This document shows, piece by piece, positions 1 through 20,814 of a stretch of 20,814 nucleotides of DNA. The notes beneath the pieces are model-generated. The model was given only the letters and a program-made list of their open reading frames with translations, made no database searches and was not told the DNA's origin. This DNA is from a virus: positions 1-20,814 of IMG/VR virus record IMGVR_UViG_3300045107_000491. One strand, 5' to 3'. Both the position numbers and the translations under genes were made by a program. Within the stretch, counting starts at the first letter, position 1. Each line of letters opens with the position of its first letter.

Positions 1-2675
1 CCGCTTGCGCCAGAGTTCGTACCATCGCCGCCACCCGACCCACCAGGCGCGCCGCCAAAAGGAAACTGGGCGTAGCATACCATCGACGGGTTGCCTGAGT
101 TAGTCAGGTTAGAGCCGTTGCCGCCAGGGTTGCCGGCGGTGCCTGCCGTGCCTCCGCCCTGGTTGGAAACAAAGTTCCAGTTTCGGTGCGAACCGCCGGC
201 GCCACCCGCTGAAGTACCACCTCCGCCTCCACCGCCGGATGCGCCGTTAAGGCCGCTGGTTCCGGCCGTGCCTGTGCCGGTGCCTCCACTAGTCGTGCCT
301 GAGCCCTTGCTGTTGGCGTTGATGGCCGCGGAATTGACCACCAGAATAGGGTTCTGCGAGTAGACGTAGAGGCCAGCCGTGTTGCCGCTGACATTGTTCG
401 TCATCTGCGAGTGCTGCAGAGTGCCGCCGGTAATTTCCAAAGAAGCGTACTGGTGGAACCCATCTTCAGTGGTTGTGCCGGAGGTGATTTCCCGTTTAAC
501 CAGGGTCGAGCCGCCATCCATCCCATCGCCAAACTTTTGGACGCGCTGATAGGGATTGAGCCGGAAAGGTTCGTGAGCGATGCCGGAGACTGTAGGGGTG
601 GAGGTAACCCAGACCACGCCCAGAAATACGGCTGGATTCGCGCTAAACGAGCCGCTCGACACGCAGGACTTCATCTTGTTGGTTCCAAGGTCGAACCAAA
701 ACTGCGGCGTGGTTGTAGCCGAGCAGGCGGGCTGCGTATAGCTATAAATCGGCGCCAGGGTGGTTTCGGCAAAGTCGGTTCCGGAGAAGACTGTACCGGA
801 TGGTGGCCTTTTGACGTAGACGTAATGGAAGGACGACGAGGCCATGCCGGTGATGGCGTCGGTGTAAGTACCGGTTCCTGTGTATTGAGCGCCGTCGATA
901 TTGGCTATCAGGGAGGTGCCAGTGATGGTGAGTTTGTTACCGGCAGTACCTTGCGCGATGAAGTTTGGATTGTTGGAGCCGTCGACTGCCGACAAGCACA
1001 GTCCATTGTCGATTTCGCTGCACGTGAAATTGCTGCTGCCGCCACCACCGGCGCCCCAGCGCAATCCGGTGCTCTGGGTTGAATCGGCAATCAGCACCTG
1101 ACCATCGGATCCGACCGCCAGATTGCTGTACGTATTAGCGCCGGTTCCTGCGATGAGGCCGCCTTTTGCGGTGCCAGGAGCCAGGGCGTTGAAGGCGGCA
1201 ATCGCAGTGGTTTGCCCGGTTCCTCCCTGGGCGATAGGCAGCGCTGCGCTAAGGTGGGTGGCGACCACGGTAGGATTGCGGCCATCGGTGCCGCCCAGGT
1301 CACCGGCCAGCTGCACCCGCCCTCCATAACTGGAGGTGGCAAAACCGAAGTTGTGGCTAGCGTCGATATCGACCAGTACATCGCTGTTGGCGGCGCAACT
1401 GGGAGAGCAGGCCTGATCCACGACAAAACCAAGGAACTGAGATCCTTGCGGGACCAGCTGATCGCCATGATCGGTTGCCTGGCCGCCGTTGGTAGCCGAC
1501 GCCAGGTAGGTATGGCCTTTGACGGCGGCATTATCGAAGCGGAGTGTCGTCTGGCCCTGGACCAGGATGACGGCGGTTCCTGTAGTGCCACAGCCTGAGA
1601 TACAGATGCCTTCGACCAGAGTATCTGTGGTGCGGGCGGTGATGCACTTGTTGGTATCGGGAATGAGGTGAGCCAGGCGTCCGGCCGTGGTTCCAGTAGT
1701 AGTGTCGTTGGCGCACAGAATCCAGTTTTTGGAGATTCCCGGCTCCCACTGTGATGCACCTGAATTCCACACCAGCGGTTGGCGGTCGAGAGTAGGAGCG
1801 GTCGCAGAAACTGATCTGCCCTGAATCGAGGTCGCATTCTGGTTGGTGGAGCAAGAGCTGTAGGAGACGCCGACCGAAGCTGCTGAGTCGGCCTTCAGGC
1901 ACAGTCCGTCTGCGCCGGCAGGGACGCGCGCATTGCTCGTTCCATTGAAGCCGAACAGATCGCCTTTGGTGGTGAGCAAGTTGGCCCCGCCCACTTTGGC
2001 CACCTCGACGAGTCCTGTTCCGTTCTCATTGACCATCAGCTTGCCGCTGGGGCCGAATCCCAGCACTGATTTGTTTGCTCCCGGCGTAGGCAGCGTGCCG
2101 AAGGAGCCTTCCACCGACCAGGGCAGCAAGCTGGTAGAGACGAAGGAGCCGGGGATAGTCAGGTTTCCGGTCGTCTTGTCGAATTCGAAGCCTTGCAGGG
2201 CGCCAAAAGTGTTGGCATCGTTGAACTGGACCTGCCGGTTGGCGCCGGCCACTCCGCCGCCAGAACCGCCACTGCCGCCCAGAGTGACTGGAATAGGTCC
2301 GGAAGAGACGCCGTTGGCGGTAGTGACCGTGTACTCGTACTGTCCTGGAGCCGCCCAAACTCCCCAGTTACCGCGCGAGTCAGCTGCGGCCACGCAAGTA
2401 GAGGTTCCGGCGAGTACTACCTGCTGGTTGGATGGGCAGGCGACAGCGAGAGTTGAGTTGGTGTAAGTCGCTGCCTTGTTGGTGCAGGGAACGGCATTCG
2501 CCGGCGCGTTGCAGAAACTGATGATCGCGTTGGGCTGGGAGACGATGACCGTACCGATGCCGGAAACCGACTTACTCTCGAGCGCCATATCCTGGTGGCG
2601 CACCCCTTGCGGGAACGCCACCATCGCCGGCAAAAGGAGAACTGATAAGCAGACGATAAGCCGGAAGAGTTTCAT
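1..2675 (-). CDS. Large exported phage tail-fibre protein, glycine-rich end (partial)
   Basis: I read one uninterrupted frame of about 891 codons from the ATG at 2675 to the window edge; its C-terminal end is outside the window. Residues 1-24 look like a Sec signal peptide (MKLFRLIV followed by CLSVLLLPAMVA). The middle is beta-rich with phage-fibre spacers such as LTTKGDLFGFNGTSNAR and, at residues 479-490, LPIAQGGTGQTT, which matches the well-known tail-fibre repeat type. From about residue 789 the chain becomes glycine-rich (runs of GGGGGG and GGAGG), like the glycine-rich tips of some phage adhesins. The start overlaps the stop of the gp4-like gene (ATGA), implying translational coupling. 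Role by family and position: receptor-binding fibre or tailspike at the end of the head/tail operon. A signal peptide on a virion fibre is odd. Fibre identity is fairly sure; the exact subtype is not. Confidence 0.8.
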   Translation of the reverse strand, partial: MKLFRLIVCLSVLLLPAMVAFPQGVRHQDMALESKSVSGIGTVIVSQPNAIISFCNAPANAVPCTNKAATYTNSTLAVACPSNQQVVLAGTSTCVAAADSRGNWGVWAAPGQYEYTVTTANGVSSGPIPVTLGGSGGSGGGVAGANRQVQFNDANTFGALQGFEFDKTTGNLTIPGSFVSTSLLPWSVEGSFGTLPTPGANKSVLGFGPSGKLMVNENGTGLVEVAKVGGANLLTTKGDLFGFNGTSNARVPAGADGLCLKADSAASVGVSYSSCSTNQNATSIQGRSVSATAPTLDRQPLVWNSGASQWEPGISKNWILCANDTTTGTTAGRLAHLIPDTNKCITARTTDTLVEGICISGCGTTGTAVILVQGQTTLRFDNAAVKGHTYLASATNGGQATDHGDQLVPQGSQFLGFVVDQACSPSCAANSDVLVDIDASHNFGFATSSYGGRVQLAGDLGGTDGRNPTVVATHLSAALPIAQGGTGQTTAIAAFNALAPGTAKGGLIAGTGANTYSNLAVGSDGQVLIADSTQSTGLRWGAGGGGSSNFTCSEIDNGLCLSAVDGSNNPNFIAQGTAGNKLTITGTSLIANIDGAQYTGTGTYTDAITGMASSSFHYVYVKRPPSGTVFSGTDFAETTLAPIYSYTQPACSATTTPQFWFDLGTNKMKSCVSSGSFSANPAVFLGVVWVTSTPTVSGIAHEPFRLNPYQRVQKFGDGMDGGSTLVKREITSGTTTEDGFHQYASLEITGGTLQHSQMTNNVSGNTAGLYVYSQNPILVVNSAAINANSKGSGTTSGGTGTGTAGTSGLNGASGGGGGGGTSAGGAGGSHRNWNFVSNQGGGTAGTAGNPGGNGSNLTNSGNPSMVCYAQFPFGGAPGGSGGGDGTNSGAS

Positions 2676-4545: not shown

Positions 4546-5778
4546 CTATGCTCCCACCACACAGACCGCACCGTTGTCCTGGTAGAGATTGCCGAATCCG
4601 ATGAGCTGATCGAAGCGATGGATGTTCATGGACCGGACCGGATCCCATGCCTTGACGAAACGAACGGCGAGGCCGGTTTGTTTGTCCTGGGCTTGCGTTG
4701 CCTGCTCCACAGCTTTCGGCGTGTATAGCTTGCCGCCGACCAGGGCAAAGGCGTACTTGGACAACGCCAGACCGACGGTCCCGACTTTGCCGTTGGGCGC
4801 GGCGGTTCCAGGCCAGAGTGTCAAGGCGGCGCCATTGGCTGGCAGCGCGTCGACGTTCTGATACTGCGAACCAGGGCCGACGATGGCCGGCAAGATGGTG
4901 AGCGCGGCGGTTCCGCCGGCAACCACAGCATCGTTCTGGATAGTGAACTGCTGCGGCTGTGCCGGGCCCGCGATGCGCCGGGTTCTGGGGTTGACGGCAT
5001 TGACGTTGGCGATGGAAATCTTGTCACCCTTTTTGAAGGTGTCGCCGTTAGTGCCGCTGACATTGAGAATGTTGCCGGACTGGTTGGCCCCGTTCACCGT
5101 AACGGCGGCCGCCCAAGTCCCAGCCGTATGGGCGTACAGCGATTGCGACTCGTAGAACTCGAATCCGGCGAGCTCTCCTAGGTAGCCTTCTTTGAAGAGT
5201 TGCGAGATTTCGTCGCGCGGATTGAAGATATTGGTGAGATTCGATCCCAGCGACGCCATCATCGAGCTTGAGATGCACATCGCCTTCTTGCCCGGAGGGC
5301 AGGCTTTCTCCAGCAAGCGCCGGCGCGCGGCGTGATAAGTAGCCACGCTATTGGGATCGGTTCCCAGCGAGCCGACGACGTTCGAGGCATTTTGGTAAGC
5401 GAATTTAGCCGCCCGGGAATCAAGCTCCTGGGCCAGCTGCTGCCCTGCCGGTTCCAAATATTGCTCACGGATCTCCTGCTCGGAGCGCTCGGCTTTGACG
5501 GCTCGCTCATAGTCGTCAAATTCGAAGTCGATCCCGAAGGGCAGATCGAGGGTTACGGTCGTAGACAGCCGCTGAATGCCCTGGGGGTTGTATCCCAGTC
5601 CATCGCGGATGATGAACTGCTGCGGGAATTTGACCTGGACGGTGGCTCCGACAGCGAATTCCTTTTTGAAATCCTTGTCGTAGCTCATGTTGAAGTACTC
5701 TGCAACCACAAGCGAGTTGATGAGGTTGCGGAGGACTTCCATCGAAATCCAGTTTACATTGAGAAATTGATTTGCCAT
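4546..5778 (-). CDS. Major capsid (coat) protein, P22 gp5-like
   Basis: At 410 aa this is close to the 430 aa of P22 coat protein and has the family's features. The N-terminal arm helix (WISMEVLRNLINSLVVAEYF) is followed by a KKEFAVGATVQVKFPQ-type strand, then DLPFGIDFEFDDYERA, typical of the E-loop/P-domain region of gp5-like coats. Residues of about 225-320 form a strand-rich insertion (NILNVSG, GDKISIANV, FTIQND, LTILPAIVG) that fits the inserted I-domain of P22 coat. It ends with WDPVRSMNIHRFDQLIGFG, also typical. It forms the icosahedral shell around scaffold and portal. It starts 9 bp after the scaffold stop with an AAAGGA ribosome-binding site. Confidence 0.92.
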   Translation of the reverse strand: MANQFLNVNWISMEVLRNLINSLVVAEYFNMSYDKDFKKEFAVGATVQVKFPQQFIIRDGLGYNPQGIQRLSTTVTLDLPFGIDFEFDDYERAVKAERSEQEIREQYLEPAGQQLAQELDSRAAKFAYQNASNVVGSLGTDPNSVATYHAARRRLLEKACPPGKKAMCISSSMMASLGSNLTNIFNPRDEISQLFKEGYLGELAGFEFYESQSLYAHTAGTWAAAVTVNGANQSGNILNVSGTNGDTFKKGDKISIANVNAVNPRTRRIAGPAQPQQFTIQNDAVVAGGTAALTILPAIVGPGSQYQNVDALPANGAALTLWPGTAAPNGKVGTVGLALSKYAFALVGGKLYTPKAVEQATQAQDKQTGLAVRFVKAWDPVRSMNIHRFDQLIGFGNLYQDNGAVCVVGA

Positions 5779-5787
5779 TGGGGGTAC

Positions 5788-6828
5788 TTATCCTTTGCGG
5801 CGTTTTAGCTCGCGGGCGTTTGCCGCGTTCATATAGGCGCGGAAATCGCCTTCTTCGACCGCGCGCACAATGTCATCGGGTGGAGGCGTGCCCTTGCCTG
5901 CCACTTCCCTGGGCACTGGTGGCGCGGTAGTAATTTTTTTCTCGGCGGGCCGGGCGAATTTTCCGGAGGAGTCGCGCACCTGCGGCGCTCCATCGGTGTT
6001 CGCCCCAAGCTCCTCCATCACCAATCGCTCTAGTACAACGACCTGGCGGATGGCGGCCGCAGGATCCCGTTCGGCTGTGCGCACGAATTGCTCGAAGTCG
6101 TCAGGCTTGCTGCCCATGACATAGAGCAGGTCCACCATGACGGGCGATGCGTCAATCATGTGCTTGAGCATGGGATCGAGTTTCTGGTCGGCGTAGATCT
6201 TCTGCGCCACCGGGCTGATGACGTCATCGAGGTCGGGATAACGGCTGCGTCCCTGGTCCAGTTGTTCCTGTAGGTGGCGCTGTTGCCGGGCAGCGGCTTC
6301 CTCGGCGCGATACTTGCGCAGCGCCTCCGCCGCTTTCCACTCGCTAAGCGCCTCGAAGTACTCTTCCAGGGTCCTGTAGCGTGGCTGTCCTTGTTCGTCG
6401 ACGTCATCCATCTGCGGCTTTTGCGTGGAGGACGCGGTCACGTTCTGGGCTGCGCTATGCGCGGGCTGTTCCGCCTGGCGTCTGGAGACAGCATCTTCCA
6501 GTTCTCTGATTTTGGCAGTGAGCTGGCGTATGCGCTGCTCAGCTGTGACCTTGCGGGCACGGCTTTTGGGCTCGTCGGGAGCCTGGCCGGATTCCGGTTC
6601 CGGCAAGTTCGATTCTTCTCCGGCGGTTTCAGCTTCTTCACCGGAGGGGATGTCGGATTCCGCCTCTCCAGGCGCTGGGGAGGGTTCCGCTCCCTCCTTT
6701 TGCGGTGTCTCGGGCAGTTTCCCGGTTCTGAGCCAGGTATCACGCTGCTCGCTCGTGATGCTGCTGATATCAATGTCTTGCGTTGCTGTCTCAGCTGCTG
6801 ACGGGGCAGCCGTTTGTACGTCATCCAT
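5788..6828 (-). CDS. Scaffolding protein, P22 gp8-like
   Basis: The 346-aa protein has the layout of a phage scaffold: an acidic, disordered, Pro/Glu-rich N-terminus (to about residue 95), a charged helical region (TAEQRIRQLTAKIRELEDAV) and further helices. It ends in a short basic tail (ARELKRRKG) like the coat-binding C-terminus of P22 gp8. In P22-type phages it co-assembles with coat and portal into the procapsid and leaves through the lattice before DNA packaging. Its place between portal and coat is exactly the P22 order. The start at 6828 is preceded by GGAGA at good spacing. The 90 bp upstream of it hold no gene. Identification rests on context and composition as much as on sequence. 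Confidence 0.85.
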   Translation of the reverse strand: MDDVQTAAPSAAETATQDIDISSITSEQRDTWLRTGKLPETPQKEGAEPSPAPGEAESDIPSGEEAETAGEESNLPEPESGQAPDEPKSRARKVTAEQRIRQLTAKIRELEDAVSRRQAEQPAHSAAQNVTASSTQKPQMDDVDEQGQPRYRTLEEYFEALSEWKAAEALRKYRAEEAAARQQRHLQEQLDQGRSRYPDLDDVISPVAQKIYADQKLDPMLKHMIDASPVMVDLLYVMGSKPDDFEQFVRTAERDPAAAIRQVVVLERLVMEELGANTDGAPQVRDSSGKFARPAEKKITTAPPVPREVAGKGTPPPDDIVRAVEEGDFRAYMNAANARELKRRKG

Positions 6829-6918
6829 CGTGGAATCTCCGATGTGTGGATTGCCGGTGTAACGCGGACCGGCTGCGCGGACAAAATCCTCGTTAGCTAC
6901 AAGATATGCGCCGTGACG

Positions 6919-9120
6919 TCACGCAACCGTTGGCGGCGCTTCAGCCGCGGGCTGTGCGGCTTGATTGCGTGCGACCAGATCCTGAAGGTGAATATTCAGC
7001 TGCCTGACCATGTCGCCGAAAAGCGCCATGCGCTCATTCATCTCTTGCGCTTTCGTGTTAATCTCTGCCACCAACACAGAGGTTTCTGCTTTGAGCCTCT
7101 CGACCGCCATGCGGTATTCGTTGTCGACGATCTTGGCTTGCTTTTCCTGCATCATCTGCGCGAGCTCGTTTTCCTTTTGCTGCGCATAGGCGTTGATGGC
7201 GAGCAGCTGCTGCTGGAGATTATTGATAGCTTCCATCGCCTGCGGCGGGAGTGGCTGCTGTTCGTCAGGAGAGATGATGTCCGCCATTTCCTCCCCTTGC
7301 GGTCCGAGATTGCGCATGCGGATAGCCATCGCCAGAAGTTTTGCGGCGGGGCTGCTCGGCGGCGGCAACTGCGGCAACATCTTGACCAGCTGATCGAGGA
7401 AGTCGGCAACTGCTTCGTGCTGCGATTGGTAGCTTGGTCCGACGGACACCGTGACGTCATGGATGCCGACATCCATGGGATAGTGCTCGGGCTCGCCGCG
7501 CTCGCCGGGATAAGGCGCATGAGTATTGATCCGCACTACTCTGTGCGCATCATCCGTTCCGCGGAACGGCACATCGCGTTCCGTGTCGTACACCACTGGA
7601 ATCATCTGTTCGATGATTCGTCCTGCGAGTTCCAGAGCGCGGTCGAAGTTGTCGACGAAATGGAAGCTGCCGAGCGCCTCCTGGGCCTGGATGCGTTCCA
7701 GCGCAACCCCTGATTTTTCGTTGCGCCGCTGTGCAGCTGTGGGCAGTGGCGTGATGCCCATGGCAGACATGATCGCGCGGCGGTAAGACTCTTTAGCGAT
7801 CTCATAGGCCTGGAAGTTAGGCTGGAATTGTGGCCGGGTGGGCAGCGGTAGCACTTGTCCGGTCGCCTGGTCGACGACAGGATCGGCTTGCAGGAAACCG
7901 TGTGGCACCTCGCTGACAGTTTCCCAGGCGTCGCGGTCGCTCTCAAACTGACCGTAGTAGCCGAGGAACGGCGATTTAGGAGACATCTTCGCTTCTTCGG
8001 CTTCCTGCGAGCAGAGATAGGAATACATCAACTGAGGATCGCGCGCCAATCGAACCATGGAGAGCAGATGACGCTCCGCTCTGCCATGCTCGTTGATCCA
8101 GACCTCTTTGCCGACAACCGGCACGATGGGGATGATGCTGGATGGCTCTTCCTGGGGCGGTTCGAGGATCTCGTATCCGTTGGTCAGGTACTGCACAACT
8201 CGACGGACTTCACAGAGTCTGCTTTTGAGCACCTCCACCTTGGCATCCGCTGGCAGTTCGTCGCGGTAAAGCGTCATTGTCCCTTGCGGGGAATCCACCA
8301 TCAGCAGTTCGCGTTCTTCCTTGGTGGCGCGCCAATATTCTGCGATCACGACATGGTCCTCGCGAATCCAGTCGCTTAGTTCTGCCAGCTCGTCGGAGGT
8401 GAAACCATCAGCTTTAGCGCGCGGATAGCGTCGTTTGAAATCTTCGATTCGAACCGGTTCGAACACAAAAACATACTCTGCGTCGGACCAGTCGGCCTCG
8501 CGGCAGTCAGGATCGTAGAGCACGCAGTCTGGGTTGGTGATTCCTTTGATCCGGATTTCTTGTTCAAACGAGCGCTCCGAGCAGTATTGCCGGGAGATGC
8601 GAAAGAACGAATAGCTGGACTGCAGCATGCGCTCGAATGCGGGGATATAGGCCGAGCGCTGCGCATTAGAACGGTACTCGATTCCGCGGATGAGATTTTC
8701 GTGGGCTTCGGCCGTTTGCGCAGTGGCATCGCCGCCGGCGGGATTGATCTTGATGCCACGTTTGTTCTGCCGGAAACTGCCCATAGCCTGGTGCAGATAC
8801 TGGTTGATCTCGTCGGGAGAGATCAGCGGCCGCTGGGCTTCTTTGCGGCTGCGCTTGGTTTCGTCGTCCCAGGGATCACCCAGGACAAACTTCATGTCGC
8901 GCGCCGCCTCCTCGCGAATCTTCCTCCACTGCTGCGCGGCGTAGCGATAGCGTTCGCGGATTTCCGTGAGCAGCTTTTCTTCGCTATCCGGGAGGCCTTT
9001 GCGTTTATGGCCGAGGCTTGGATCGGCGTGGAGCTCTGCTTTCATTTTGTTTTTTTGCGGAGCGCTGAGCGGAGAAAACTTGGAAAGTAGATAGCGGACT
9101 TGCCGCCTGGCCCATGGCAT
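6919..9120 (-). CDS. Portal protein, P22 gp1-like
   Basis: With the ATG at 9120 the protein is 733 aa, near the 725 aa of P22 portal. I chose this start because a GAGAAG ribosome-binding site precedes it and it lies 1 bp after the upstream stop; an in-frame ATG at 9183 would add 21 residues overlapping the previous gene. Family features include the N-terminal helical region (RYRYAAQQWRKIREEAARDM), FVLGDPWDDET, a stretch about NQYLHQAMGSFRQNKRGIKI and the later SGVALERIQAQEALGSFHF. The last 110 or so residues are a long charged helix, matching the coiled-coil barrel that projects into the capsid in P22. The portal is the dodecameric vertex through which DNA is packaged and ejected, docking the terminase. 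Confidence 0.93.
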   Translation of the reverse strand: MPWARRQVRYLLSKFSPLSAPQKNKMKAELHADPSLGHKRKGLPDSEEKLLTEIRERYRYAAQQWRKIREEAARDMKFVLGDPWDDETKRSRKEAQRPLISPDEINQYLHQAMGSFRQNKRGIKINPAGGDATAQTAEAHENLIRGIEYRSNAQRSAYIPAFERMLQSSYSFFRISRQYCSERSFEQEIRIKGITNPDCVLYDPDCREADWSDAEYVFVFEPVRIEDFKRRYPRAKADGFTSDELAELSDWIREDHVVIAEYWRATKEERELLMVDSPQGTMTLYRDELPADAKVEVLKSRLCEVRRVVQYLTNGYEILEPPQEEPSSIIPIVPVVGKEVWINEHGRAERHLLSMVRLARDPQLMYSYLCSQEAEEAKMSPKSPFLGYYGQFESDRDAWETVSEVPHGFLQADPVVDQATGQVLPLPTRPQFQPNFQAYEIAKESYRRAIMSAMGITPLPTAAQRRNEKSGVALERIQAQEALGSFHFVDNFDRALELAGRIIEQMIPVVYDTERDVPFRGTDDAHRVVRINTHAPYPGERGEPEHYPMDVGIHDVTVSVGPSYQSQHEAVADFLDQLVKMLPQLPPPSSPAAKLLAMAIRMRNLGPQGEEMADIISPDEQQPLPPQAMEAINNLQQQLLAINAYAQQKENELAQMMQEKQAKIVDNEYRMAVERLKAETSVLVAEINTKAQEMNERMALFGDMVRQLNIHLQDLVARNQAAQPAAEAPPTVA

Positions 9121-9121
9121 A

Positions 9122-9619
9122 TCACTTCTCGCGGATGGCTGGGCAATGTGGGCAGATTTCGCGTGCTTCGCCATCGGCGTCATCGCACACCCAGCCTTTG
9201 TTTCGCGCTTGCCTTACGCAGTCGGTCTGGTCGCTGCCCACAAAGACTTCCTGCGAAAGGCATTTAGCGCAAACCATCAAGAGCGAGCCGCGCGACTCGC
9301 GGCGGCGGATCGCTTCTGTGGCGATGTCTTCCAGGCTAGCTGTCTCAGAGTGCGAGATTGCTTCCGAGGCCCGTATGCGGCCCTCACTCACGTAATCGTC
9401 GAGCGGTTTTGCGGTGAATCGCAGACGCGGTTTCAGCGCTTCGTAGGCGTCGGTTCGCTGGTGGGGTTCGACCTTGAGCAGCAGTGCGCGGAAGCGTTCG
9501 TGATCATCGATCAAACTCGCGATCTGGTCGAGCAGCAACCTAGGACTGTCCAGCCCGGCGAACCCATAGCCCTGGAGCGCGGCATTGAGAGCTTTGCGTT
9601 TAGTTGCCTGGGTAATCAT
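9122..9619 (-). CDS. Hypothetical protein with C-terminal zinc ribbon
   Basis: About 165 aa from the ATG at 9619, which lies 10 bp after the stop of the preceding gene; an upstream in-frame start at 9661 would overlap that gene. The first two thirds are helical and charged (TKRKALNAALQGYGFAGLDS, later LIDDHERFRALLLKVEPHQR). The last 50 residues carry a zinc-ribbon-like set: C-A-K-C, two single cysteines, then C-P-H-C close to the end. It is inserted between terminase and portal, where P22 itself has no such gene. I do not recognise the family. DNA or protein binding during packaging is possible given the ribbon. Its stop is directly followed by the portal start. Confidence 0.65.
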   Translation of the reverse strand: MITQATKRKALNAALQGYGFAGLDSPRLLLDQIASLIDDHERFRALLLKVEPHQRTDAYEALKPRLRFTAKPLDDYVSEGRIRASEAISHSETASLEDIATEAIRRRESRGSLLMVCAKCLSQEVFVGSDQTDCVRQARNKGWVCDDADGEAREICPHCPAIREK

Positions 9620-15275: not shown

Positions 15276-15597
15276 TTTTATCCCGCCGCTTGCGGTCGGC
15301 TTGTCGGCGGCGATAGCCCGGCGCTCTGATCCGGAATCATCCCATCGGGCCGGAGGGGAGATAACCGTGTCCGGGCGCCGGGAAGGCCAGCTGCTAGGCG
15401 TTCTGGCGCTGGTACGCAAGTATCCGGGATCAACCTCGCTAGAGCTTGCCTACAAGTCGTTCAGCCTGGACCGCTACGTGGTCGCGCGGCGCCTGCCAGA
15501 GCTCGAAAAAGCCGGATTGGTGAGTCGAGGCCCCCTAAAGCAGTGCGGGATCTCGAAAAAATTAGCGCTGACCTGGGTGCCGGCGCGGAAAGGATGA
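15253..15597 (+). CDS. Winged-helix DNA-binding protein (phage type)
   Basis: 114 aa from the ATG at 15253 (AGGAAG upstream). Residues 22-45 (ARRSDPESSHRAGGEITVSG) match the conserved leader of a common phage winged-helix family, and a MarR/IclR-like wHTH follows: LLGVLALVRKYPGSTSLELA, then DRYVVARRLPELEKAGLVSR. It probably binds DNA or a DNA-replication complex. Codons 46 to 111 lie within a 196-bp segment that is repeated exactly at 16341-16536, where the frame has no start. This upstream copy is the intact gene. Confidence 0.75.
   Translation: MSYQSSFDFIPPLAVGLSAAIARRSDPESSHRAGGEITVSGRREGQLLGVLALVRKYPGSTSLELAYKSFSLDRYVVARRLPELEKAGLVSRGPLKQCGISKKLALTWVPARKG
15381..15584. repeat. Direct repeat, copy 1 (204 bp)
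   Basis: Bases 15389-15584 are identical to 16341-16536 by direct reading (196 bp, offset 952). A further 7 bp (ggaaggc) match beyond one C/T difference at 15388/16340. Copy 1 is the core of the intact winged-helix gene. Confidence 0.93.
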
Positions 15598-15606
15598 GAG
15601 CAGAAC

Positions 15607-16342: not shown

Positions 16343-16536
16343 CTGCTAGGCGTTCTGGCGCTGGTACGCAAGTATCCGGGATCAACCTCGCTAGAGCTTG
16401 CCTACAAGTCGTTCAGCCTGGACCGCTACGTGGTCGCGCGGCGCCTGCCAGAGCTCGAAAAAGCCGGATTGGTGAGTCGAGGCCCCCTAAAGCAGTGCGG
16501 GATCTCGAAAAAATTAGCGCTGACCTGGGTGCCGGC
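16333..16536. repeat. Direct repeat, copy 2 (204 bp)
   Basis: Second copy of 15381-15584, 952 bp downstream, with one difference. It begins within the last codons of the gene ending at 16342 and stops abruptly after gccggc at 16536. The lack of silent changes means the duplication is recent or is kept identical by gene conversion. Confidence 0.93.
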
Positions 16537-16597
16537 ACACCCGACCGCAGCAGCGCGGTGGTCTCTGTTTCCTGCACGTCGAAGACAGTCGCCATAG
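16343..16597 (+). pseudogene. Headless copy of the winged-helix gene
   Basis: The winged-helix core (residues 47-111 of the 15253 gene) is repeated here in frame but is preceded by a stop and lacks the first 45 residues and any ATG. After the repeat the frame continues into a foreign 19-residue tail ending at 16597. It is probably non-functional, unless an internal GTG or TTG is used. Confidence 0.7.
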
Positions 16598-16728: not shown

Positions 16729-17154
16729 GTGAAAAATTCGTTGCGCAGCAACCAGCTTTGTCCCGTGCATCGCAGTTACTACTGCTGCGGTCGCGCGCGC
16801 ACAGAACGCCTCGAAAAGAAGCTCGAACGCGGCCGGAGGCCTTCAGCGCTGAAAGGATGGATCCAGGTTGGAGAAGGTCTGTGGCGAATCGAGGATCAAT
16901 TTCATCCCCGCGGATACCGCGAAAAGCGCTCGGCAGACCAGCTGCGGCGGATCAAGAACCAGCTGCTGTTGGCCGGAGCAAAATGCCTGTATTGCGCATC
17001 GCCATGGACTGACTACAGAGATGTAGAGGTAGCGCACAAAGAGCCCAAGGGGATGGGCGGAGCCAGGCGCGATGACCACCCGGACAACCTGGGATTGGCG
17101 CATCGTGCGTGTAACTGGAAGAACGGATCGCGACGGTTCGGCGGCGGACGCTAG
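16729..17154 (+). CDS. HNH endonuclease
   Basis: 141 aa from a GTG at 16729 with TAGGAG upstream. The C-terminal half has an HNH layout: C86-L-Y-C89, H103 in EVAHKEPKGMGG, N120 in DHPDNLGLAHR, and H125/C128 as the last zinc-ligand pair. The N-terminus carries additional Cys/His (C11-PVH, C19-C20-G) and a basic helix. HNH proteins nick or cut DNA; free-standing phage versions may be homing nucleases or help packaging. This one lies in the early module, far from the terminase, so homing or host-DNA attack is as likely as packaging. Confidence 0.78.
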   Translation: MKNSLRSNQLCPVHRSYYCCGRARTERLEKKLERGRRPSALKGWIQVGEGLWRIEDQFHPRGYREKRSADQLRRIKNQLLLAGAKCLYCASPWTDYRDVEVAHKEPKGMGGARRDDHPDNLGLAHRACNWKNGSRRFGGGR

Positions 17155-17185
17155 GCCGGAGGGTTGAATGACCAATGCAAAAAAT

Positions 17186-17207
17186 CTGGCCTGGAAACCC
17201 AGGCCAG
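17186..17207. terminator. Hairpin with minus-strand T-tract before ATPase gene
   Basis: CTGGCCTGG (17186-17194), loop aaac, CCAGGCCAG (17199-17207): a perfect 9-bp stem. Read on the minus strand it is followed by ATTTTTT, the form of an intrinsic terminator for antisense transcription. On the plus strand it has no T-tract and sits directly 5' of the AAAGGAG site at 17209-17215. Confidence 0.65.
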
Positions 17208-17222
17208 TAAAGGAGATGGAAC

Positions 17223-18437
17223 ATGACTAATCAATTCTACAGCAAGACCGCAATCACCGGATCCAACGGGTCCGGGAAAACTGCCACCGCAATGTTGTTT
17301 GCTATTGGCCTGGCGATTCAGTCCGGCAAGCGGCCAGTGGTCACCTTTGACTCCGAAAAACGCCACGTATTCTGGCAGAGCGCTTTCGCTGCGGAGGGTA
17401 TTCCGCTGATTGTGGTGCCCGGGCGATCATTCAAGTCCATGAACGAGAGTCTGCGTACTGCCCAGCGCGAGCGGGCTGCGGTATGGATCGGAGACTCGCT
17501 GACTCCCGCCTGGCAGGAGCTGGTGGAGAGCTTCGCCCTGCCGGATGGCCGTCTTCCGGTAGAGCGGCAGAGCCAGCTGCGGCGCATGTGGAACGGATTT
17601 GTGGTCGAGTTTCTCGACGCCCAGTTCCATGGCATCGGCTGTGGGCGCCTGGGTTGGGAGTGGGTCAATGCCGAGAATGCCGACGGCAATCGGGAACTCG
17701 TGAAGGGAGATCCAAAGTTCAAGGCTGGCGGCGGGGAATCCTTTGGCTACGACTGCCATCTCGAGCTTGAGATGCGGCGCCACGAGTGGCAGACCATCGA
17801 AAAGAAGTCAAAGCGCCGCAGAATCGACGTTTCGCATATTTGCACCGTAGTCAAGGACGCGACCGGGGCGCTGTCCACGCTGGAATTCCAGTTTCGACCC
17901 TTGCAGGGAGGATACAAGACCGGAGCATATCGCAGAGTGTACGAATGCCTGCTGCCACACTTGAAGGTAATGGAGAATCTTCCTGACGCCAAGGTCGGCG
18001 GTGCTTCTTCCCGGGAACTCCTGGTATCGGGAGAGTCCGAGTATGCCCGCGACCAGAAGGAGCGGGCGATTGCCCTCGAGAAATTCACTGGCACGCTGAA
18101 TCTCATCTGGCCCGGGCAAACCGCAGCTGAGAAGCGCGCGCGCGCCATGGTGCTTCACCAAGTCACAGGCACGCTGTCGATGACCGAGGTTGAGAACAAT
18201 CTCTCCACGCCGAAGCTGATTCAGGCTGCCGAAGTGGCCGGCAATCTCAAACAGATTATCGAACAGGAAGGCTATCCAGCCGGGGAGGAGAGGGAGTGGA
18301 GGCGCAACCTGATGGCGATGATTGACCTGGCAATGCATCCGGAGAAGAACCTCACCTTCCTGGAAGTCATGGGAGCCAAGTCGGTCAAAAAGGTTCTGGC
18401 CGAAAAGGAACAGCGAAGGGCTCAGGCAGGTGATTGA
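17223..18437 (+). CDS. P-loop ATPase, RecA/Sak4-like phage recombination protein
   Basis: The 404-aa protein carries Walker A GSNGSGKT (residues 13-20) at its very N-terminus and a Walker B-like AVWIGDSLT with D91. This layout is typical of phage RecA-fold ATPases (AAA_24 or Sak4 type) that act with single-strand binding proteins in recombination or replication. The middle (AENADGNRELVKGDPKFKAG, then RRRIDVSHICTVVKDATGAL) continues the ATPase core, and the C-terminal 130 residues are helical and charged. No helicase motifs or DNA-polymerase domains are seen. The start is set by AAAGGAG at 17209-17215. It is the largest intact plus-strand gene and the only clear DNA-metabolism enzyme besides the nucleases. 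Confidence 0.75.
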   Translation: MTNQFYSKTAITGSNGSGKTATAMLFAIGLAIQSGKRPVVTFDSEKRHVFWQSAFAAEGIPLIVVPGRSFKSMNESLRTAQRERAAVWIGDSLTPAWQELVESFALPDGRLPVERQSQLRRMWNGFVVEFLDAQFHGIGCGRLGWEWVNAENADGNRELVKGDPKFKAGGGESFGYDCHLELEMRRHEWQTIEKKSKRRRIDVSHICTVVKDATGALSTLEFQFRPLQGGYKTGAYRRVYECLLPHLKVMENLPDAKVGGASSRELLVSGESEYARDQKERAIALEKFTGTLNLIWPGQTAAEKRARAMVLHQVTGTLSMTEVENNLSTPKLIQAAEVAGNLKQIIEQEGYPAGEEREWRRNLMAMIDLAMHPEKNLTFLEVMGAKSVKKVLAEKEQRRAQAGD

Positions 18438-18449
18438 GCACAGAGCTTA

Positions 18450-18480
18450 GCTCCCGCTTACGGGGATAAAGCGCAGGAGC
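18450..18480 (+). other. Hairpin in intergenic leader
   Basis: GCTCC-CGCTT (18450-18459), loop acggggat(a), AAGCG-ca-GGAGC (18469-18480): ten pairs with a two-base bulge. It starts 13 bp after the ATPase stop and precedes a second, larger inverted repeat. Confidence 0.5.
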
Positions 18481-18485
18481 AAGCC

Positions 18486-18565
18486 GGGAACGTTCAGGAG
18501 GAGAAAGTGGGAGCAACGCGACTCAGAGTTAGCCATGCAAGCTCCCGCTCCTCCGGAACGTTCCC
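18486..18565 (+). promoter_or_regulatory. 80-nt near-perfect inverted repeat before second HNH gene
   Basis: The arms 18486-18503 and 18548-18565 are complementary at 17 of 18 positions. Inside them a second pair (gggagc near 18508, gctccc at 18541-18546) extends the fold, leaving a loop of about 27 bases. Each arm holds GAACGTTC, and the right one is the full palindrome GGAACGTTCC. The AGGAG ribosome-binding site (18566-18570) starts at the base after the right arm. It could be an RNA control element or a DNA operator. Confidence 0.65.
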
Positions 18566-18577
18566 AGGAGCAGCTGG

Positions 18578-19087
18578 ATGATACGCAATCTGCGCTGGCT
18601 ACAGAAGTTCGGATGCGAGTGCTGGTACTGTGGGTCGACGCTGGTGCCGGAAGAGGCGACGGTAGATCATCGCGTGCCTAGGTGCCGGGGAGGATCAGAT
18701 CGGCCCTCGAACCGCGTTCCGGCGTGCCGGCGCTGCAATTCCATGAAACGGGACAAGACGGAGGCGGAATTCTATGTCTACAAACCGTGCTTTCGGCGCA
18801 GGCAGAGGCGTTATCCAAGGATCGGAAGGATTACGCGCTGGGGGCGGCCCAGGAGCAAAAAGCGGGGATGGGAGAGAGACGATTGTTTCTCGGAACGTGT
18901 CTGTAGTAGGCAATTCCGAGACGCAGGTCAGGGTCGCGCTGCTGTACCTAAGAAAATTAGGGCAGAGGAACTTCTACAACTACTTTCCGGAATGCTGGGA
19001 AGAGCCGCTAACTGCCGCGGAGACACTGAAATTCGGCAGGAATCAATCGAAGTGGTGCAACTGCACGGAAGGCAAGGCGAAATCTGA
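18578..19087 (+). CDS. HNH endonuclease, second copy type
   Basis: 169 aa from the ATG at 18578. Residues 13-54 form a compact HNH unit: C15-W-Y-C18, D30-H31 in ATVDHRVPRCRGGSD, N45 in PSNRVPACRRCN, and C50/C53 as the second zinc pair. The motif is better conserved than in the first HNH gene. The rest is arginine-rich, then helical. From 18774 a second frame overlaps it, so the true C-terminus is uncertain. The gene is preceded by a large stem-loop, which may control it. Likely a DNA nicking or homing nuclease. Confidence 0.75.
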   Translation: MIRNLRWLQKFGCECWYCGSTLVPEEATVDHRVPRCRGGSDRPSNRVPACRRCNSMKRDKTEAEFYVYKPCFRRRQRRYPRIGRITRWGRPRSKKRGWERDDCFSERVCSRQFRDAGQGRAAVPKKIRAEELLQLLSGMLGRAANCRGDTEIRQESIEVVQLHGRQGEI

Positions 19088-19998: not shown

Positions 19999-20032
19999 TT
20001 GAATTTGCCAGCGCACAGTTCGGAGGAAACCG

Positions 20033-20814
20033 ATGGCCGCAGGTATGAGAGATCACTCAATTATTCCTATCCACGAATGGACGAACGGCGGAGACGAAGT
20101 ACTAGTAGTGCGTTTCTGCGGCCAGGACGGAGCATCTTACTCCGGCGTAGACAGGAGCGGGAAACCAGTCAGTTTCGTCCATCCTCTCCGAGTAGGGGAG
20201 AGCTTAGAAGCGCCCGATTGGGTGGACGACTACAGGTGTGGCGGCGGAATACACGGATGGCCCTGGGGCATGTCGCTCGGGGATGGAAAGACGTGCGATT
20301 GGGCCGCGGTATGGCTCGTATACGGAGTGAAGCCTGCAGACATTAAAGGCGGCAGTGGCGAGCTCATCGGCAAGTGCAAGTTCAGGCGCGGAATCCTGCG
20401 CCATGTTGGGGACTGGCACAGCGCGATGCTGTTCGTCCTCCCTGGACAGATCGCGTGGGTACATCACGCCGCGAGGGGCGCAGCGTCCGCGACAGGCGAG
20501 AGCGGCGCCGCGTCCGCGACAGGCGAGAGCGGCGCAGCGTCCGCGACAGGCTTCAGGGGCGCCGCGTCCGCGACAGGCATCAGGGGCGCCGCGTCCGCGA
20601 CAGGACCCAGTGGAGCCGCGTCCGCGACAGGACCCAGTGGAGCCGCGTCCGCGACAGGACCCAGTGGAGCAGCGTCCGCGACAGGCATCAGGGGCGCCGC
20701 GTCCGCGACAGGCTTCAGGGGCGCCGCGTCCGCGACAGGCGAGAGCGGTGCAGCGTCCGCGACAGGCTTCAGGGGCGCCGCGTCCGCGACAGGCGAGAGC
20801 GGCGCAGCGTCCGC
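20033..20814 (+). CDS. DUF7666-like protein with 9-residue repeats (3' cut)
   Basis: The frame opens at the ATG at 20033 (GGAGG upstream) and is still open at the window end, at 260 codons. Residues 1-148 resemble DUF7666 N-terminal domains: the segments ADDRY-like PDWVDDYRCGGGIHGWPWGM, LGDGKTCDW and FVLPGQIAWV. From residue 149 the chain is a tandem repeat GAASATG plus two variable residues (ES, FR, IR or PS), at least 12 full units. I associate this repeat, with other variable pairs, with DUF7666-type phage and prophage proteins. The small, regular residues suggest a stacked beta-roll or fibre. Role unknown; possibly a surface or host-interaction protein. Confidence 0.7.
   Translation, partial: MAAGMRDHSIIPIHEWTNGGDEVLVVRFCGQDGASYSGVDRSGKPVSFVHPLRVGESLEAPDWVDDYRCGGGIHGWPWGMSLGDGKTCDWAAVWLVYGVKPADIKGGSGELIGKCKFRRGILRHVGDWHSAMLFVLPGQIAWVHHAARGAASATGESGAASATGESGAASATGFRGAASATGIRGAASATGPSGAASATGPSGAASATGPSGAASATGIRGAASATGFRGAASATGESGAASATGFRGAASATGESGAAS
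20477..20814 (+). repeat. 27-bp in-frame tandem repeat, 12.5 copies to window edge
   Basis: Each unit is 27 bp (ggcgccgcgtccgcgacagg plus 7 variable bases) and encodes GAASATG-xx. The copies differ in the last codons, giving xx = ES, ES, FR, IR, PS, PS, PS, IR, FR, ES, FR, ES. Because 27 is divisible by 3, stop-free frames appear in other phases and on the other strand as well. Confidence 0.95.

What the first reader, a model, noticed from the sequence alone, without database searches (positions are those of the whole stretch)
20033..20814. DUF7666-type protein with a perfectly regular GAASATG-xx array
Seen: an N-terminal domain of about 148 residues followed by 12.5 units of 9 residues with seven fixed positions and only two variable ones. 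Known: similar AASATG repeats occur in DUF7666-type phage proteins whose function is not established. Inferred: a rigid stacked fibre displaying pairs of side chains (acidic, aromatic/basic, aliphatic/basic, proline) at fixed pitch. This may be the least understood system in the window.
Basis: partly seen in the sequence, partly recalled or inferred. Interest (0 to 1): 0.75.

Follow-up and report, generated by a model that had tools for sequence, protein, structure and literature searches.

The report
Hypervariable repeat array in phage gene
A phage gene outside the particle-building region makes a protein with a domain resembling the T4 counter-defence protein RIIB, followed by a perfectly regular array of nine-residue repeats that, in related phages, is shuffled and resized while the rest of the gene stays identical, so it may be a fast-evolving tool in the contest between phages and bacteria.

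Summary
An ORF at 20033 runs off the contig end after a 148-residue domain and 12 full GAASATG-xx units plus GAAS. The contig probably stops there because the repeat breaks assembly: 34 of 80 related viral contigs also end in this gene.

The protein belongs to the family of Bordetella phage BPP-1 Bbp36, whose "variable region 2" (VR2) was reported in 2002-2004 and is unexplained. Bbp36 and other relatives are DUF7666 proteins by Pfam; the window protein is homologous to them but does not itself reach the cut-off. New here: (1) the N-terminal domain matches the C-terminal domain of T4 RIIB by profile and by fold; (2) the gene lies among early-type genes, on the strand opposite the virion genes, so a virion fibre is unlikely; (3) in 21 pairs of relatives with identical upstream coding sequence, none share the same array, while 20 share an identical C-terminal cap; (4) array core DNA is homogenised within a phage but replaced synonymously between phages; (5) no reverse transcriptase was found with it. 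Best reading: a dispensable early protein with an RIIB-type domain and a recombination-shuffled solenoid, probably acting in counter-defence. That function is inferred, not shown.

The parts
20022..20026 (+). GGAGG ribosome-binding-like sequence, 6 bases before the ATG
   Evidence: read directly
20033..20814 (+). whole gene as held, open at the 3' contig end; the true C-terminus is not in the record
20033..20476 (+). N-terminal domain, residues 1-148: phrog_18079; homologous to DUF7666 proteins and to the C-terminal domain of T4-type RIIB
   Evidence: phrog_18079 2.6e-16; 34-36% identity to L007, BPP-1 Bbp36, D14O and Mica, of which Bbp36, D14O and Mica hit PF24703; hhalign to RIIB; AF2 pLDDT 77-97 over residues 11-140
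20237..20260 (+). motif C69-G-G-G-I-H-G-W76; C69, G70, G72, H74, G75, W76 invariant in the 93 sequences aligned; C..GLH is shared with RIIB
20372..20380 (+). K114-C-K116, both lysines invariant in the 93 sequences aligned; K-x-R stands at the corresponding place in RIIB (read by eye, outside the hhalign stretch)
20477..20814 (+). tandem array: 12 complete 27-bp units from 20477 (every 27 bases) plus 14 bases of a 13th; encodes GAASATG-xx
20498..20503 (+). first of the two-codon variable cassettes (offset 22-27 of every unit); the four cassettes are GAGAGC, TTCAGG, ATCAGG, CCCAGT
16729..19087 (+). neighbouring early-type genes on the same strand: HNH endonuclease 16729-17154, ATPase-like protein 17223-18437 (phrog_1366), HNH endonuclease 18578-19087
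4546..9183 (-). virion genes on the opposite strand: P22-like coat (4546-5778) and P22-like portal (6919-9183)

Best explanation
This is an early phage protein of the Bbp36/VR2 type. Its N-terminal domain is a DUF7666/RIIB-type domain. Its C-terminal part is an array of 27-bp in-frame units, probably folded as a two-sided beta-solenoid with one 9-residue side per unit, the two variable residues lying at the turns, and in complete relatives closed by a cap of about 60 residues. Unequal recombination or slippage between the identical core sequences changes the number and order of cassettes always in frame, so the protein is not switched off; only its length and its surface pattern (acidic, aromatic/aliphatic, small, basic) change. 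SHOWN: array anatomy, homology, gene neighbourhood, hypervariation in relatives. INFERRED: the solenoid fold of the array, the recombination mechanism, and the role. Most likely role: a dispensable accessory factor acting inside the infected cell against a host- or prophage-encoded exclusion or defence system, as RIIB does against RexAB, with the array as a quickly changing contact surface or spacer. Confidence is about 0.85 for the family, location and hypervariability, and about 0.35 for the counter-defence role.
For: N-domain: phrog_18079, DUF7666 through relatives. RIIB relation: the N-domain profile against the RIIB C-terminal profile gives hhalign probability 82.5%, E 9.8e-6, score 35.1, against a maximum of 18.8 in 40 column-shuffled controls and 12.3 reversed. 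Independently, a fold search of viral models lists many RIIB proteins at probability 1.00. RIIA/RIIB are unnecessary without Rex and needed with RexAB (PMC11879866); bbp36 is likewise dispensable (PMC2884959). Neighbours of relatives: DnaB, RecE, RecT, Erf, SSB, exonuclease, methyltransferase, repressors, CII. Hypervariation: 21 pairs with identical 330-nt upstream coding sequence, 0 identical arrays, 20 identical caps. BPP-1, BIP-1 and BMP-1 differ by 17-20 bases in VR1 and a handful of bases elsewhere, yet VR2 has 14, 20 and 21 units. 45 of 57 arrays have one single core DNA sequence, while 10 different DNA versions of the G[A/S]A[S/A]ATG core exist between phages. No RVT_1 in 35 records including the window.
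Against: No function has been measured for any DUF7666 or VR2 protein that I could find. The RIIB relation is domain-level and distant (14% identity), and RIIA, RIIB's partner, was not found in 32 records bearing these genes. The N-domain also resembles ADP-ribosyltransferase folds weakly (Z 3.1-4.9), so an enzyme is possible. Hypervariation is shown in relatives, not in the window's own phage. Short-read assemblies may scramble or collapse arrays, although the Bordetella records and two complete bacterial genomes (L088, L097) also carry long arrays. The array model has pLDDT of only 51-73, and AF2 overpredicts solenoids for perfect repeats (PMC11795689).
Confidence: 0.45

Rival explanations
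1. The array is a nearly neutral minisatellite: the protein needs some solenoid or spacer of about this composition, and cassette order and number drift freely through slippage, without selection for particular patterns.
For: Copy number runs from about 2 to more than 28 among relatives and order looks arbitrary. Short identical repeats in phage DNA are expected to slip. VR2 changes did not track host tropism (PMC2884959).
Against: Between lineages the core peptide is kept by synonymous codons, so the protein is under selection. The variable residues are restricted to the same few chemistries (x1 mostly D, Y, E, W, N; x2 mostly R, S) in arrays with different core DNA, which plain slippage would not produce. 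In the window x1 and x2 are fully linked (p about 0.003 by shuffling), but copied cassettes explain that too.
Confidence: 0.3
2. The N-domain is an ADP-ribosyltransferase-like enzyme made early, comparable in role to T4 Alt/Mod, and the solenoid positions it or selects its target.
For: The clearest PDB matches to the N-domain are ART folds: TreTu (Z 4.6-4.9), Arr (3.1-3.7), PARP16 (3.5) and a CNFy region that I recall as ART-like (3.8-4.0). Invariant H74 and lysines could be catalytic.
Against: All Z are under 5, in the range of common arrangements; plain Foldseek had no PDB match at E <= 0.001. Conservation of known ART catalytic residues could not be tested without coordinates.
Confidence: 0.1
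3. The protein is a virion fibre or adhesin.
For: Several tail-fibre PHROGs score against the array; solenoids and trimeric head domains occur in fibres.
Against: Those PHROG hits are to low-complexity Gly/Ala/Ser/Thr repeats. The gene is on the strand opposite coat and portal, among early-type genes; relatives sit beside replication and lysogeny genes. The gene occurs with different virion types: only 3 of 18 relatives tested carry the P22-type portal family.
Confidence: 0.06
4. The repeat acts as DNA (iterons, replication origin, recombination or partition site) and the peptide is incidental.
For: Core DNA is identical in all copies within most phages (45 of 57 arrays), and the gene lies in the early region.
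Against: Core DNA is not conserved between phages while the peptide is; the units keep frame and follow a conserved domain.
Confidence: 0.06
5. Collagen-like triple helix.
For: Pfam Collagen hit 2.3e-8 and collagen chains in the PDB search.
Against: The unit is GAA-SAT-Gxx: every third triplet has Ser instead of Gly, with almost no proline; other lineages (GTATAG-xx, 8 residues) do not fit a period of three at all.
Confidence: 0.03

Closest known systems
Bordetella phage BPP-1/BMP-1/BIP-1 Bbp36 with variable region 2 (VR2)
   Same: Homologous N-domain (34-36% identity range), tandem in-frame units with one constant core and a few two-codon cassettes, early-region location
   Different: Unit is 24 bp (GTATAG-xx) rather than 27 bp (GAASATG-xx); Bbp36 reaches the DUF7666 cut-off, the window protein does not; Bbp36 is complete with a cap
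Pfam DUF7666 (PF24703)
   Same: Same domain by homology through Bbp36, D14O, Mica and L094
   Different: The window protein itself is below threshold, as are its nearest relatives L011 and L012
T4-type RIIB lysis inhibitor (protector from prophage-induced early lysis), C-terminal domain
   Same: C..GLH motif and V.P.D(V/I)V strand in the same order; profile and fold matches
   Different: In T4 RIIB the domain is C-terminal and the protein works with RIIA; no array there, and no RIIA in the array phages
Mycobacteriophage Tweety gp54 / Che8 gp57 (tetrapeptide repeats)
   Same: Constant plus variable repeat positions, copy number differing between close phages, compared with VR2 by its authors (PMC2884959)
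   Different: 4-residue AAxx unit; homology of the rest was not tested here
E. coli K-12 YdhT
   Same: Imperfect 9-residue repeats followed by a similar cap (NCBIfam NF007410 hits in L005/L006; phrog_4433 and phrog_18079 hits of YdhT; sequence)
   Different: Chromosomal gene, no DUF7666 hit, repeats degenerate rather than perfect
lasAI/lasAII (hyvI/hyvII) of Liberibacter prophages
   Same: Prophage genes with hypervariable in-gene tandem repeats (PMC4249863)
   Different: 132-bp units, described as autotransporter-like proteins; no relation tested

Membership tests
phrog_18079 (Bbp36-type proteins) | profile match of the N-terminal domain | tested here: met
   2.6e-16 over residues 21-136; BPP-1 Bbp36 matches the same family at 7e-77
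Pfam DUF7666 (PF24703) | score of the window protein at or above the curated cut-off of 27 bits | tested here: not met
   no hit for the window protein at E <= 1; closest relative L011 13.9 bits
Pfam DUF7666 (PF24703) | homology to proteins that do pass the cut-off | tested here: met
   34-36% identity to Bbp36, D14O and Mica, which score 38.8-41.7 bits
VR2-type hypervariable array protein | in-frame tandem array with constant core and few cassettes | tested here: met
VR2-type hypervariable array protein | array differs between otherwise near-identical phages | not testable with these tools
   no near-identical copy of the window's phage was found; met in relatives: 0 of 21 pairs share the array, BPP/BIP/BMP, L012/L013 and L023/L024
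VR2-type hypervariable array protein | C-terminal cap after the array | not testable with these tools
   window truncated; present in the closest complete relatives L011, L012
RIIB lysis inhibitor | C-terminal domain with C..GLH motif | tested here: met
   hhalign 82.5%, E 9.8e-6; fold matches
RIIB lysis inhibitor | whole-protein match to an RIIB family | tested here: not met
   no RIIB PHROG among the families listed for the window protein or its N-domain, nor for the L009 and L012 N-domains
RIIB lysis inhibitor | RIIA partner encoded in the same phage | tested here: not met
   phrog_612 found only in the positive control PhiW-14, in none of 32 other records; many are fragments
Diversity-generating retroelement target | reverse transcriptase in the record | tested here: not met
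   no PF00078 match in 35 records, though many are fragments; BPP-1 has one (brt), annotated with VR1
Collagen-like protein | Gly at every third residue | tested here: not met
   Ser at the middle triplet of every unit, despite the Pfam score
Virion tail fibre | encoded with the virion genes | tested here: not met
   opposite strand to coat and portal; early-gene neighbours in relatives
ADP-ribosyltransferase fold | significant fold match of the N-domain | tested here: inconclusive
   Z 3.1-4.9 to ART chains; no significant Foldseek match
Beta-solenoid | array folds as stacked strands | tested here: inconclusive
   AF2 draws 7-residue strands with 2-residue turns at pLDDT 51-73; AF2 is biased for perfect repeats

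The most novel reading that the evidence does not exclude
A reverse-transcriptase-independent protein diversification system in early phage genes: an RIIB-type domain carries a modular solenoid whose two residues per rung are drawn from a small cassette set and reshuffled by recombination, giving each phage a different, always in-frame surface code that decides which exclusion or defence factor it can neutralise.
Probability: 0.2. Interest if true: 0.85.

Novelty: new variant of a known kind. Interest (0 to 1): 0.6.

Why it matters
VR2 of BPP-1 has stood unexplained for two decades. Placing it in a family found in at least 79 viral contigs and 12 bacterial genomes, joining its domain to T4 RIIB, and showing that hypervariation is confined to the array makes the question testable: does the array set the range of defences a phage can overcome? 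It also warns that short-read assemblies of such phages often break at this gene, so its C-terminus and true diversity are probably under-reported.

Tried and rejected
Collagen (Pfam, NCBIfam and PDB sequence hits): rejected as composition, Gly missing in one of three triplets. Tail-fibre PHROG hits: rejected, low-complexity matches and wrong genomic location. DGR: rejected, no RT in 35 records; the window's variable codons show no adenine-restricted pattern by eye. DNA-site function: core DNA not conserved between phages. Ice nucleation (annotation of the Mica protein): not pursued beyond noting that ice-binding proteins appear among weak solenoid matches. PDB sequence profile search of the N-domain: one chance hit at E 0.72. 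Foldseek against PDB: no significant match. PADLOC: no hit for the array proteins. The original 2004 BPP-1 paper is not in the library, so its claims are cited through PMC2884959. DUF7666 is not mentioned in any held paper.

Full report
THE OBSERVATION. The ORF starts at 20033 with a good ribosome-binding sequence and is open at the contig end. Its 148-residue N-terminal domain is followed by 12 complete GAASATG-xx units and GAAS. All core differences between units are synonymous (three wobble positions), while the two variable codons take only four forms, GAGAGC, TTCAGG, ATCAGG and CCCAGT. The regularity is far beyond chance. The held record is exactly the window, so the C-terminus cannot be read.

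WHY THE CONTIG ENDS HERE. Searches with the N-domain gave 79 viral loci and 12 bacterial genome loci. Of 80 viral loci counting the window, 34 run off the contig end in this gene, against 4 whose contig begins within 900 bases upstream. Nearly all stop in or at the edge of the array. The array therefore seems to break short-read assembly; the truncation is most likely technical, and 12.4 copies is not a measured total.

FAMILY. The N-domain matches phrog_18079 (2.6e-16) and is 34-36% identical to Bordetella phage BPP-1 Bbp36, a protein of Pseudomonas phage D14O and one of Burkholderia phage Mica. These pass the DUF7666 cut-off; the window protein does not, so it is a homologue on a sister branch rather than a Pfam member. 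Complete close relatives (L011, L012) have the same GAASATG-xx array followed by a degenerate unit and a cap of about 60 residues ending in an IKA(D/N)T-x-Y-x-L-KGGKFV motif. Two classes exist: 9-residue units (GAASATG-xx, SASSATG-xx and others) and 8-residue units (GTATAG-xx, STLTGG-xx).

THE N-DOMAIN RESEMBLES RIIB. AlphaFold2 models the N-domain well (pLDDT 77-97 for residues 11-140). Against predicted viral structures the best match is a DUF7666 protein (3.2e-8), and many RIIB proteins follow at probability 1.00. I fetched RIIB from T4 and PhiW-14 and RIIB or RIIB-like matches from eleven further phages. The RIIB C-terminal domain carries C..GLH, V.P.DVV and K.R in the same order as C.GGIHGW, V.PADI and K.K here. 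Profile comparison gives 82.5% probability, E 9.8e-6, score 35.1, while 40 column-shuffled controls reached at most 18.8 and the reversed profile 12.3; the aligned stretch covers the first two motifs. The 8-residue class alone is weaker (27.8%). The clearest PDB matches to this domain are weak ADP-ribosyltransferase folds, which leaves an enzymatic origin open. RIIA and RIIB are dispensable without Rex and needed in the presence of lambda RexAB in diverse phages (PMC11879866). The array phages examined carry no recognisable RIIA, so if the domain works like RIIB, it does so without that partner.

LOCATION. In the window, coat and portal genes lie on the minus strand and this gene lies on the plus strand with HNH endonucleases and an ATPase-like gene. 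In BPP-1 it follows cI by a few genes; in Mica it precedes regulators and a primase/helicase. Scanning 87 neighbours of relatives gave RecE, RecT, Erf, SSB, DnaB, exonuclease, methyltransferases, sigma factor, integrase, repressors and CII; no virion family was among the 25 most frequent of 141 shown. Only 3 of 18 relatives carry the window's P22-type portal family. This argues for an early accessory protein and against a virion fibre.

HYPERVARIATION. BPP-1, BIP-1 and BMP-1 differ in 17-20 bases of VR1 and a handful of others over 42 kb, but VR2 has 14, 20 and 21 units in different orders, and BIP-1 has a cassette (AATTAC) absent from the BPP-1 genome. The same holds for P. aeruginosa-type prophages: in 21 pairs with identical 330-nt upstream coding sequence, none share the array and 20 have identical caps; array lengths range from 42 to 450 bases, in multiples of the unit. 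Relatives nearest the window behave alike: L012 and L013 have an identical N-terminal stretch and different arrays. Changes keep frame, so this is not on/off phase variation. Short-read assembly error could contribute to individual cases.

PROTEIN OR DNA. In 45 of 57 arrays every copy has one core DNA sequence; on average 0.39 of about 19 core bases vary within an array, against 2.96 of 6 in the variable codons. Between phages the same core peptide is written with 10 (G[A/S]A[S/A]ATG, including a few amino-acid variants) or 11 (GTATAG) different DNA sequences. So arrays are homogenised within a phage while selection between phages is on the peptide. The variable residues are chemically restricted across lineages: first mostly D, Y, E, W, N; second mostly R and S. 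The window's set (E/F/I/P with S/R) is a departure, with F, I and P uncommon. No reverse transcriptase was found in 35 records, so this is unlikely to be a retroelement target; recombination between identical cores is the simplest mechanism (inference).

THE ARRAY FOLD. AF2 draws seven-residue strands with two-residue turns, pLDDT 51-73, and ordered strands for the cap in L012. AF2 gives confident but unrealistic solenoids for perfect repeats (PMC11795689), so this is weak evidence. Better evidence is that natural relatives with imperfect repeats keep the period and the cap: E. coli YdhT, with 9-residue repeats and a similar cap, and L089/L092 with degenerate 8-residue repeats.

KNOWN AND NEW. 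Known: VR2 as a 24-bp repeat varying from 9 to 20 copies in bbp36, dispensable, not linked to tropism (PMC2884959). New in this work, as far as the held literature shows: the 27-bp variant, the breadth of the family, the RIIB connection, and the demonstration that hypervariation is confined to the array across many phages. The function remains inferred; counter-defence is my best guess, neutral slippage the strongest rival.

Noticed in passing
L118:7748-8560 (E. coli K-12 ydhT): YdhT consists largely of imperfect 9-residue repeats plus a cap like that of the phage arrays; an uncharacterised chromosomal gene next to ydhU/X/W/V may share this module.
   Followed up: partly
L103:33230-33703 (BIP-1 VR2): BIP-1 carries seven copies of a cassette (AATTAC) that is absent from the BPP-1 genome although the two differ almost nowhere else; its origin is unexplained.
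   Followed up: partly
window 20477-20800: Cassette order is E E F I P P P I F E F E, nearly mirror-symmetric about the P block; possibly chance.
   Followed up: no
L104:33231-33728 (BMP-1 VR2): Near its 3' end the array shows an irregular junction and a 6-base insertion that keep the frame.
   Followed up: no
window 3-2675 (-): Large Gly/Ser-rich ORF running to the contig start on the virion-gene strand; only phrog_32934 (unknown function) matched.
   Followed up: no
window about 15461-15600 and 16413-16560: Minus-strand ORFs at these two places share the same C-terminal peptide (ALIFSRSRTALGGLDSPIRLFRALAGAARPRSGPG), indicating a duplicated DNA segment in the early region.
   Followed up: no
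window 20477-20814; L012, L022, L031, L057 arrays: The Pfam Collagen model (PF01391) scores above its cut-off on these arrays, so automatic annotation may mislabel them as collagen-like.
   Followed up: yes
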